From Myxococcus stipitatus DSM 14675 (lineage in GTDB: Bacteria; Myxococcota; Myxococcia; Myxococcales; Myxococcaceae), in the NCBI RefSeq assembly GCF_000331735.1, contig NC_020126.1:1674001-1738000 (forward strand): DNA of 64,000 nucleotides, read 5' to 3'. The notes beneath the pieces were generated by a model. That model did not search any database. It was not told where the DNA came from and was given only the letters and a program-made list of their open reading frames with translations. Shown here piece after piece: positions 33,801-39,083 of the stretch (within the stretch, counting starts at the first letter, position 1; the number at the start of each line of letters is the position of its first letter). The position numbers were made by a program, and so were the translations under genes.

Positions 33801-36800
33801 TGGCTGAAGCAGCGGCTCCCTGAGTTCATGGTGCCTTCGGCGTTCGTGAAGCTGGACGCGCTGCCGCTGACCGCGAACGGCAAGGTGGACCGCAAGGCCC
33901 TGCCGTCGCCGGAGCAGGAAGGGGCGGCGGGAGACGAGGCGCAGGGGCCTCGGAGCGTCATGGAGGGGTTGGTGGCGCGCATCTGGATGCCGCTGCTGGG
34001 CGTGGCGCGCGTGGGCGTGAAGGACGACTTCTTCGCGTTGGGGGGACACTCACTGTTGGCGACGCGAGTGGTGTCTCGACTGCGGGAGGCGCTGGGCCGC
34101 GAGGTCCCGGTGCGGATGTTGTTCGAGGCGCCCACGCTGGAGTCCCTGGCCGAGCGACTGGAGGCGATGAAGGCGACGACGCTCGGGACGAAGCAGGCAC
34201 CCGCGTTGGTGCGAGTGCCTCGCAGCGAGGGGATGCCGCTGTCCTTCGCGCAGCGACGTCTGTGGTTCCTCGGGAGCCTGGATGCGGGGGGCTATTCGTA
34301 CAACCTGCCCTTCGTCGTCCGGCTGCGAGGCGTGTTGGACGTGGCCGCGCTGGAGCATGCGTTCACGGAGTTGGTGTGGCGCCATGAAGCCCTGCGCACG
34401 ACGTTCGCCGAAGTGGAGGGCGAGCCCGTGCAGCGCATCGCCTCACCGGAGCCCGTGCGCGTGCAGGTGGTGGATGCACGGGGCGTCGCGACGCGGCCTC
34501 ACGTCGAAGCCCTGGCGCGAGCGTCCTTCGACCTGACGAAAGGGCCGCTGCTGAGGGTGACGTTGGTGAAGGAGGGTGAAGGGGAGCACGTGATGGTGGT
34601 GGTGGTGCACCACATCGTGGCGGACGGGTGGTCGATGGGGGTGATGGCGAGGGAGGTGGAGGCGCTGTACGGGGCGTACGTGAAGGGGGAGGAGGGGAAG
34701 CTGGAGGAGGTGGGGTTGCAGTACGCGGACTACGCGGTGTGGCAGCGGGAGTGGATGAAGGGGGCGGTGCTGGAGGAGCAGTTGGGGTGGTGGAGGGAGA
34801 GGTTGAGGGGAGCGCCGGAGGTGCTGGAGGTGCCGACGGACCGGGCGAGGCCAGCGGTGCAGGGGTACCGAGGCGCGAGCGTCGCGGTGAGGATGAAGGA
34901 GGAGCTGGCGGAGGGGCTGAGGGAGCTGAGTCGACGAGAAGGCGTGACGCTGTACATGACGCTGCTGGCGGGGTTCCAGACGCTGCTGGCGAGGTACAGC
35001 GGGCAGTGGGACGTGGTGGTGGGCTCGCCGGTGTCGGGGAGGACGGTGAAGGAGGTGGAGGGGCTCATCGGGTTCTTCGTGAACACGATGGTGGTGAGGA
35101 CGGAGGCGGGGGGCGAGCTGACGTTCCGGGAGATGTTGGGGAAGGTGAAGGAGTCGGTGCTGGGAGCGCTGGGTCACCAGGAGGTGCCGTTCGAGAAGCT
35201 GGTGGAGGCGATGAGTCCGGCGCGAGACATGAGCCGTGCTCCACTGGTCCAGGTGGCGTTTGGTTTGAATGGGCCGGCGCGGTTGCCTCGGCTGCCGGGT
35301 GTGAGCGCGTCGGAGGTGGAGTACGAGCCGGGCATGGCGAAGTTCGACCTCGCGTTGTCGGTGCGCGAGGACGCCGAGGACCTGACGAGCTTCTGGGAGC
35401 TCAACACGGACCTGTTCGAGCGAGAGACCGTGGAGCGCATGGCCGCGCACTACCAGCAGTTGCTGGAGGCCGCGGTGAGGGAGCCCGAGACGCGGCTGGA
35501 TGCGCTCCCCATGGCGGGGCATCGGGATGTGCCCGTGAAGCGGGCCCTGACGGCTCCGCCGCTGAAGAAGAAGGCGCAGTGGACGCCTGAAGGCTTCATC
35601 GCGCCGAGGACCGCGCTCGAGGAGCTGGTGGCGGACACGTGGGCTCCGTTGCTGGGGATGAAGCGGGTCGGCGCGGAGGACCACTTCTTCGACCAGGGTG
35701 GGCACTCGTTGCTGGTGATGCAGGTGGCTTCGCGACTGCGCGAGGTGCTGGGTCGCGACATCCCCGTGCGCATGCTCTTCGAGTCACCCAGGTTGTCGGA
35801 GCTGGCCAGCCACCTCGAAGACCTGGTGCGAGGCACCCCCGGTCCGGTGCGTCCGGCGCTGCCTCCCGTGTCGAGCCGGGAGGTGTTGCCGCAGTCGTTC
35901 GCGCAGCAGCGCTTGTGGTTCCTGGACCGGCTGGAGCCGAACAGCCCGCTCTACAACATCGCGCTGGCGATGAAGCTGGAGGGCGTGCTCGATGTGGCGG
36001 CGCTGGAGCGGGCCTTCAACACCGTGGTCCGTCGTCACGCGTCGCTGCGGACGACGTTCCGTCAGGACGAGCAAGGCGCGGTGCAGTGCATCCACCCAGA
36101 GGTCTCGCTGCCGTTGGCGGTGGTGGACCTGACTGAGCTTTCGGGCGCGATTCGAGCGCAAGAGGTGTCGCGGCTCGTCGCGCAGGAGGGGCATCGGCCC
36201 TTCGACCTGACGAAGGGGCCGCTGCTGAGGGTGACGTTGGTGAAGGAGGGTGAAGGGGAGCACGTGATGGTGGTGGTGGTGCACCACATCGTGGCGGACG
36301 GGTGGTCGATGGGGGTGATGGCGAGGGAGGTGGAGGCGCTGTACGGGGCGTACGTGAAGGGGGAGGAGGGGAAGCTGGAGGAGGTGGGGTTGCAGTACGC
36401 GGACTACGCGGTGTGGCAGCGGGAGTGGATGAAGGGGGAGGTGCTGGAGGAGCAGCTGGGGTGGTGGAGGGAGAGGTTGAGGGGAGCGCCGGAGGTGCTG
36501 GAGGTACCGACGGACCGGGCGAGGCCAGCGGTGCAGGGGTACCGAGGCGCGAGCGTCGCGGTGAGGGTGAAGGGGGAGCTGGCGGAGGGGCTGAGGGAGC
36601 TGAGCCGACGAGAAGGCGTGACGCTGTACATGACGCTGCTGGCGGGGTTCCAGACGCTGCTGGCGAGGTACAGCGGGCAGTGGGACGTGGTGGTGGGCTC
36701 GCCGGTGTCGGGGAGGACGGTGAAGGAGGTGGAGGGGCTCATCGGGTTCTTCGTGAACACGATGGTGGTGAGGACGGAGGCAGGGGGAGAGCTGACGTTC

Positions 36801-39083: not shown

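What the first reader, a model, noticed from the sequence alone, without database searches (positions are those of the whole stretch)
34527..36928. 728-bp near-identical duplication within two condensation domains
Copies at 34527-35254 and 36201-36928 differ at about a dozen positions by eye, while the flanking parts of C3 and C4 are much less alike. The sharp edges and identical offset of 1,674 bp indicate recent gene conversion or intragenic duplication, a way NRPSs are rebuilt. The repeated core also has unusual, purine-heavy codon use.
Basis: seen in the sequence. Interest (0 to 1): 0.6.

Follow-up and report, generated by a model that had tools for sequence, protein, structure and literature searches.

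The report
Gene-converted peptide-synthetase block with strand bias
Two neighbouring domains of a giant bacterial peptide-making enzyme keep copying a 728-base stretch of DNA onto each other, and stretches copied in this way drift towards purines on the strand that points the way replication runs, which suggests a direction-biased copying process.

Summary
The repeat is real: 34527-35254 and 36201-36928 match at 717 of 728 bases; the C-domain flanks are 53-58% alike. Both lie in condensation domains C3 and C4 of one NRPS, C-A-T-C-A-T-C-T-C-A-T.

Relatives show concerted evolution, not one recent duplication. In three sister species C3 and C4 cores are 98.5-99.7% alike within a genome but 92.6-95.6% between orthologues; a C3 clade is rejected (AU p 4.65e-8). 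The edges are old: the 5' edge recurs in all ten species compared. The A-less C-T unit occurs once (six species) or three times (five); three of the single-unit species keep an A-domain remnant.

In five complete myxobacterial genomes, NRPS stretches at least 95% like another place in their region carry excess purine on the leading replication strand, whatever the coding strand: 28 of 29 eligible regions, including 10 of 11 predicted beforehand. On the core's stem branch, pyrimidine-to-purine changes outnumber the reverse 23:2 (controls 5:7, 4:6); 0 of 15 unconverted singleton differences are of that kind.

Best reading: recurrent gene conversion (firm), with a fork-directed, purine-favouring bias (inferred). 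Homogenised blocks are ordinary in these genomes; my searches listed no report of the strand bias.

The parts
27762..39083 (+). NRPS gene, 3773 aa, C-A-T-C-A-T-C-T-C-A-T, no thioesterase
27873..29213 (+). C1 domain
   Evidence: (home-made HMM), Pfam Condensation 4 stretches
31053..32399 (+). C2 domain; its core is about 69-70% like the repeat by BLAST and is not homogenised with it
34224..35549 (+). C3 domain (A-less module 3)
34527..35254 (+). homogenised core, copy 1, from 27 residues before HHxxxDG to the RDxSRAPL motif; purine 0.671
35613..35822 (+). T3 carrier domain following C3 without an A domain
35877..37226 (+). C4 domain
36201..36928 (+). homogenised core, copy 2; purine 0.674
37236..38711 (+). 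A4 (last A domain), candidate loader of T3 and T4; loading not tested
   Evidence: pocket letters
25659..27401 (+). stand-alone AMP-binding ligase upstream, candidate starter-loading enzyme (inference)
39080..42823 (-). KS-AT-carrier-thioesterase PKS gene, convergent, possible last stage of the line (inference)

Best explanation
SHOWN: the 728-bp block is the conserved core of two neighbouring C domains that is kept alike by repeated gene conversion within each of three sister species (concerted evolution). It stops at old mosaic junctions beyond which the domains are only 52-58% alike. Near-identical blocks also occur in other NRPS regions of these genomes, and wherever module copies are nearly identical the DNA is shifted to purine on the leading replication strand, independent of transcription direction. 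INFERRED MECHANISM: a replication fork that breaks in a module array leaves a one-ended break whose 3' end is always the leading-sense strand; it invades a neighbouring similar module. The heteroduplex then holds purine-purine mismatches where the invader has a purine and pyrimidine-pyrimidine mismatches where it has a pyrimidine. If mismatch repair corrects the first in favour of the invader and overlooks C-C and C-T, each round gives leading-strand purines a small advantage. This predicts C-to-G and C-to-A changes, growing with conversion and flipping with replichore, as seen. For the enzyme (inferred): conversion is tolerated because C3 and C4 probably handle the same monomer, the A-less T3 being loaded by a neighbouring A domain, A4 by preference. 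Confidence by layer: conversion 0.97; association of homogenised blocks with leading-strand purine in these genomes 0.9; fork/mismatch-repair mechanism 0.4. The number below is for the whole.
For: Within-genome core identity 98.5/99.7/98.5% against 92.6-95.6% between orthologues; flank trees by position, core tree by genome in the three sister species, AU p 4.65e-8 against a C3 clade; 51 of 74 variable core sites homogenised in every one of the three species but different between them, 0 fixed C3/C4 differences, against 78 of 163 and 91 of 159 fixed differences in the flanks. Leading-strand purine higher in >=95% than in <75% tiles in 18 of 18 eligible regions of three genomes under the dnaA rule and in 10 of 11 of two further genomes predicted beforehand; rise with identity in all five genomes after removal of near-duplicate tiles, for co-directional and for head-on genes. 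Stem-branch changes 23 pyrimidine-to-purine (C>G 14, C>A 7, T>A 2) against 2 reverse, controls C1 5:7 and C2 4:6; unconverted singletons 0 of 15 pyrimidine-to-purine, homogenised species-specific changes 13 against 3 with 24 transitions. C-C is recognised more poorly than G-A and G-G in yeast (PMC3422593, passages).
Against: No raw reads, strains of one species or experiment. The substitution spectrum rests on one locus and 33 changes, and a stem-branch filter differs from a singleton filter; transition excess among young differences is usual anyway. One eligible region, G021 4550k, goes the other way (-0.054), 63-109 kb past the computed terminus; two G002 regions show almost no shift (+0.002, +0.010), one of them within 0.12 Mb of the computed terminus. 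My first, skew-based strand assignment gave 17 of 18. The cores of the G002 group sort by position, so recent conversion is not seen there. G+C-rich tracts of AG repeats are also enriched, so composition could come first. Bacterial MutS behaviour on C-C and C-T is recalled, not tested.
Confidence: 0.6

Rival explanations
1. Composition comes first: purine-rich, leading-oriented tracts (Chi-like sites, or polypurine tracts that stall forks) attract recombination, and the homogenised blocks are simply those that carry them.
For: AG-rich 6- and 8-mers are the most enriched in homogenised tiles in both gene orientations; the E. coli Chi octamer on the leading strand is about twice as frequent in homogenised as in diverged tiles in G000/G008 (7.8 vs 3.8 co-directional, 1.2 vs 0.6 head-on per 10 kb).
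Against: No single motif stands out; purine octamers rise more than Chi. Something must first create the tracts, and stem changes inside the core are 23:2 while C1 and C2 of the same gene are 5:7 and 4:6.
Confidence: 0.25
2. Recombination-linked mutagenesis: error-prone repair synthesis or oxidised guanine on the exposed template makes C-to-A and C-to-G changes on the leading-sense strand, which conversion then spreads.
For: The spectrum C>G, C>A fits oxidised-guanine-type transversions on the opposite strand (recalled chemistry); stem changes.
Against: Differences still confined to one copy are 13 transitions and 2 purine-to-pyrimidine of 15, no pyrimidine-to-purine; a mutagenic source should show in fresh differences. 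Eight further differing sites were ambiguous.
Confidence: 0.15
3. Ordinary replication-strand mutation pressure (cytosine deamination) or selection on codon use explains the purine excess.
For: Non-NRPS sequence of the same replichores is mildly skewed in the same direction.
Against: Diverged modules beside the blocks show only a small skew. In homogenised tiles of G000 and G008 third-position leading-sense T falls and A rises, unlike the usual G and T excess (PMC3174206, passages). 16 of 23 pyrimidine-to-purine stem changes are at first or second codon positions. The sign follows replication, not coding.
Confidence: 0.07
4. A single recent duplication of 728 bp, or an assembly error.
For: High identity and sharp edges.
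Against: The pair exists in sister species with species-specific shared changes in three single-contig assemblies; G000 copies keep 11 distinct differences.
Confidence: 0.02

Closest known systems
Concerted evolution of PKS/NRPS domains (Medema et al. 2014, PMC4256081, passages)
   Same: Domains of one cluster resemble each other more than their positional counterparts elsewhere; reported there also for most C domains of daptomycin/A54145/CDA clusters.
   Different: Here a defined sub-domain core is homogenised between fixed edges, resolved at species level, with a replication-strand purine bias that the passages seen do not mention.
Sub-domain recombination in NRPS genes (Baunach et al. 2021, PMC8097286, passages)
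   Same: Exchange of part of a domain while interfaces stay.
   Different: There mainly the A core, changing substrates; here the C core, exchanging near-identical sequence between neighbours.
A-less T-C units of fungal ferrichrome synthetases (PMC2644324, passages) and the mannopeptimycin NRPS (PMC8949500, passages)
   Same: Carrier and C domains without their own A domain, degenerate A domains in some relatives, variable unit number; loading by another A domain is proposed there.
   Different: Here C-T within a bacterial line that starts with C, one or three units, and C cores homogenised with the last module; loading is untested.
GC-biased gene conversion (review PMC6429543, passages)
   Same: A conversion-linked shift of composition, not selection on the product.
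   Different: The shift is purine against pyrimidine on one replication strand; G+C of the core is 0.674 against 0.70 for the gene.

Membership tests
Concerted evolution by gene conversion | Paralogues within a genome more alike than orthologues between genomes | tested here: met
   Core 98.5-99.7% within against 92.6-95.6% between in three sister species
Concerted evolution by gene conversion | Converted part groups by genome while flanks group by position | tested here: met
   for three sister species; in the three-unit species cores group by species group, then mostly by position; in the G002 group by position
Concerted evolution by gene conversion | Conversion observed directly between strains or in culture | not testable with these tools
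   One genome per species is held
A-less C-T unit loaded by another A domain | C and T present with catalytic motifs, no A domain between | tested here: met
   HHIVADG and GGHSLL in C3/T3, 21-residue gap between the HMM hits of C3 and T3
A-less C-T unit loaded by another A domain | Loading of T3 by A4 or A2 | not testable with these tools
   Needs a biochemical assay; only pocket letters listed
GC-biased gene conversion | G+C raised in converted sequence | tested here: not met
   Core G+C 0.674/0.675 against 0.700 for the gene
Usual leading-strand mutation skew | G and T in excess on the leading strand | tested here: not met
   In homogenised tiles of G000 and G008 third-position G and A rise, C and T fall on the leading strand

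The most novel reading that the evidence does not exclude
Ectopic gene conversion in bacterial chromosomes has a built-in direction: fork repair always invades with the leading-sense strand, and mismatch repair then favours purines on it. Converted module arrays therefore acquire strong leading-strand purine skew that rewrites both codons and amino acids of catalytic domains, and the same bias acting weakly on ordinary recombination could contribute to genome-wide GC skew, for which a 2019 review says no satisfactory unifying explanation is available (PMC6429543, passages).
Probability: 0.4. Interest if true: 0.88.

Novelty: new variant of a known kind. Interest (0 to 1): 0.72.

Why it matters
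If conversion carries a strand-directed bias, it is a non-adaptive force that changes catalytic domains of biosynthetic enzymes; it would let converting modules be read from composition alone, and it offers a testable cause of strand asymmetry beyond deamination. The unit number (one or three) with an A-domain remnant shows stages of how A-less modules arise in bacteria.

Tried and rejected
Assembly artefact and single recent duplication: rejected from the sister species. One Chi-like motif: 6- and 8-mers compared; AG-rich tracts dominate in G000/G008, a more mixed list in the other three genomes; no single motif. Cytosine deamination: third-position T on the leading strand falls. A correlation of identity with coding purine over + strand genes alone was flat (Spearman 0.06); all >=85% tiles on + genes lie in the two first-replichore regions, where the shift is plain, so the flat value comes from mixing replichores. 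Polarity of the C-T number (1 to 3 or 3 to 1): open, the between-core trees rooted on the G002 group leave a polytomy. A species tree from rpoB/rpoC was tried twice and discarded: the script picked wrong reading frames and still mixed strands, visible as 42% identities. Substrate prediction from the pocket letters was not attempted; the position numbering used is recalled. The window's species was not verified (I recall a Myxococcus stipitatus genome of about this length); the genus Myxococcus is supported by one relative, G013, whose 435,691-bp contig has the length and region of a Myxococcus eversor contig. Outside the five genomes: of 79 loci L046-L124, 23 were eligible under laxer limits (>=93% and <78%); the size of the purine shift has median 0.048 in 13 myxobacterial loci and 0.022 in 10 others, where Comamonas (0.088), Ktedonobacteria (0.075) and Thioploca (0.054) are the largest; replication strand unknown. 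Not in print: searches (strand bias; NRPS conversion) listed no title or abstract on strand-biased conversion in bacteria; most subscription papers are not held. Papers seen as passages: PMC4256081, PMC8097286, PMC9205934, PMC8949500, PMC2644324, PMC3422593, PMC3174206, PMC6429543; all others only as search listings.

Full report
What is there. The window lies at 1,674,001-1,738,000 of a single-contig 10.35-Mb genome. They lie in one NRPS of 3773 residues with order C-A-T-C-A-T-C-T-C-A-T. The repeat runs from 27 residues before the HHxxxDG motif to the RDxSRAPL motif of the C domain. All four HHxxxDG and all four carrier motifs (GGHSLL/GGNSLL) are intact. No Rfam family reaches its gathering score in the window.

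Relatives. Of 27 genomes held of the genus, own included, the gene was recognised in 11 from the match lists and the domain layout; the other 16 were not examined further. Three (G000, G014, G008) have one A-less C-T unit; five (G003, G004, G005, G013, G025) have three in a row; three (G002, G010, G022) have one unit that still holds an A-domain remnant of 108-139 residues; the sequence printed for G002 and G010 looks like decayed late A motifs (motif names recalled). The gene is split over two frames in G013 and in G022, both draft assemblies; the two G013 pieces at the break were left out of the trees.

Conversion. Within G000, G014 and G008 the C3 and C4 cores are 98.5, 99.7 and 98.5% alike; between species the orthologous cores are 92.6-95.6%. 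The flanks are 52-58% between C3 and C4 but 85-94% between orthologues. In these three species flank trees group by position and the core tree by genome; keeping the three C3 cores together is rejected (AU p 4.65e-8). Of 74 variable core sites, 51 are identical in C3 and C4 of every species but differ between species, 23 are split within one or two species, and none is a fixed C3/C4 difference; in the flanks 78 of 163 and 91 of 159 variable sites are fixed C3/C4 differences and 1 each is homogenised. In the four three-unit species with unbroken frames the cores of C3 to C6 are 84-94% alike and the flanks 53-79%; in G013, broken pieces included, cores are 78-96%. There the core tree groups by species group, then mostly by position; in the G002 group (C3-C4 cores 82-83%) it groups by position, so no recent conversion is seen. 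Under strict scoring the 5' edge is at alignment column 324-327 in the ten species compared; the 3' edge is at 1054-1056 in six and at 1016-1017 in the four three-unit species; under laxer scoring the 3' edge dissolves in the latter and both edges in G010 and the 3' edge and 5' edge in G022. Edges are thus old, and conversion is confined by them.

How ordinary. Four of nine other NRPS regions fetched from the same genome hold near-identical blocks of 860-1569 bp (1569 bp at 98.9%, 1207 bp at 99.0%, 934 bp at 98.7%, 860 bp at 96.3%), over parts of A, C and T domains. The block as such is a usual product of this genome.

The purine signal. Core purine is 0.67-0.68 in the three sister species, 0.576-0.598 in the five three-unit species (C3 and C4 listed; for G013 C3 only) and 0.519-0.545 in the G002 group, against 0.515-0.569 in C2, in step with homogenisation. 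Blocks in minus-strand genes of G000 showed the opposite coding-strand skew, so the excess follows the chromosome strand. I cut NRPS genes into 300-bp tiles (step 150), took the best identity to another place in the same region, and measured purine. In G008 the sign of the excess flips between replichores defined by the GC skew of 10-kb samples; in G000 all but 2 tiles at 95% or more lie in one replichore, so no flip can be seen there. dnaA lies at 0.0, 4.53 and 10.65 Mb in G000, G008 and G002. Setting the leading strand from dnaA and its antipode only, tiles at 95% or more exceed tiles under 75% in leading-strand purine in 18 of 18 eligible regions, 11 of 29 being not eligible; my first, skew-based assignment had given 17 of 18. 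A prediction for two unseen genomes, one of another genus, was written before fetching: 10 of 11 eligible regions agree, 6 of 17 not eligible; the miss, G021 4550k, lies 63-109 kb past the computed terminus. Two G002 regions are positive by only 0.002 and 0.010. After removal of near-duplicate tiles (8839 to 3671) the rise with identity is graded in all five genomes and in co-directional (0.504 to 0.635) and head-on genes (0.524 to 0.606).

What changes. On the stem to the three sister species the core has 33 inferable changes at 528 usable sites: 23 pyrimidine to purine (C>G 14, C>A 7, T>A 2), 2 purine to pyrimidine, 8 transitions; 16 of the 23 are at first or second codon positions. The same filter on C1 and C2 of the same gene gives 5:7:4 and 4:6:6. 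Differences confined to one of six copies are 13 transitions and 2 purine-to-pyrimidine (8 more sites ambiguous); changes already shared by C3 and C4 of a species are 13 pyrimidine-to-purine, 3 reverse, 24 transitions, 11 not polarised. The bias is absent among fresh differences and present among converted ones, which points to biased conversion or another fixation bias rather than to mutation. This rests on one locus. Between copies in 14 regions transitions fall from 64% of differences at >=95% identity to 33% at 70-80%, which agrees but is also what ordinary divergence gives.

Mechanism. A one-ended break at a fork exposes a 3' end of leading sense (recalled). Invasion of a similar module makes purine-purine or pyrimidine-pyrimidine mismatches at transversion sites according to the invader's base. 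C-C is recognised more poorly than G-A and G-G in yeast (PMC3422593, passages); for bacterial MutS I rely on recall. Repair that keeps the invader at purine-purine sites and overlooks C-C and C-T yields a leading-strand purine drive with the observed spectrum. Steps shown: conversion, strand sign, spectrum. Steps inferred: fork origin, strand of invasion, repair bias. Recombinogenic purine tracts and mutagenic repair remain rivals.

The enzyme. C3 to the last C are homogenised, C1 and C2 are not; the last A domain has four sets of pocket letters among 11 species while A2 has one and A1 varies at two positions (numbering recalled). I infer that the A-less carriers are loaded by the last A domain, so that these C domains see the same monomer; untested. 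The 5' ends of C4-C6 resemble each other and so do the 3' ends of C3-C5, as expected if unit number changes by crossing-over inside the shared core; direction unresolved.

Comparison. Concerted evolution of NRPS C domains is known (PMC4256081); sub-domain recombination is known mainly for A cores (PMC8097286); A-less units are known in ferrichrome synthetases (PMC2644324) and mannopeptimycin (PMC8949500). The usual leading-strand excess is G and T (PMC3174206); here it is G and A. I found no report of a strand-directed bias of conversion in the searches named under Tried and rejected.

Noticed in passing
L045, L044, L043 (G002, G010, G022), between C3 and T3: A-domain remnant of 108-139 residues in module 3, decayed in the two sequences printed; the other eight species have lost it.
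   Followed up: partly
G003, G004, G005, G013, G025 orthologues (L033-L042): Three A-less C-T units in a row instead of one; direction of change unresolved.
   Followed up: partly
last A domain of the 11 orthologues: Pocket letters differ between lineages (DAAAVVGVCK, DAWTVAGVCK, DGAILAGVCK, DAATLAGVAK; final K assumed) while A2 is constant.
   Followed up: no
G000 NRPS regions at 5.3-8.0 Mb: The four fetched NRPS regions of the second replichore hold only 2 tiles at 95% or more; all eligible blocks of this genome lie in the first replichore.
   Followed up: no
window 20710-25500 (-): Beside the NRPS: sulfotransferase, semialdehyde dehydrogenase and split transketolase-like genes, plus a carrier-like hit at 27461-27658; product unknown.
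   Followed up: no
window 51091-51342: Short direct repeat, offsets 33 and 66 bp, 90-93% identical.
   Followed up: no
L041 (G013), inside C4: The NRPS frame breaks inside the homogenised core in a draft assembly; frameshift or misassembly not told apart.
   Followed up: no
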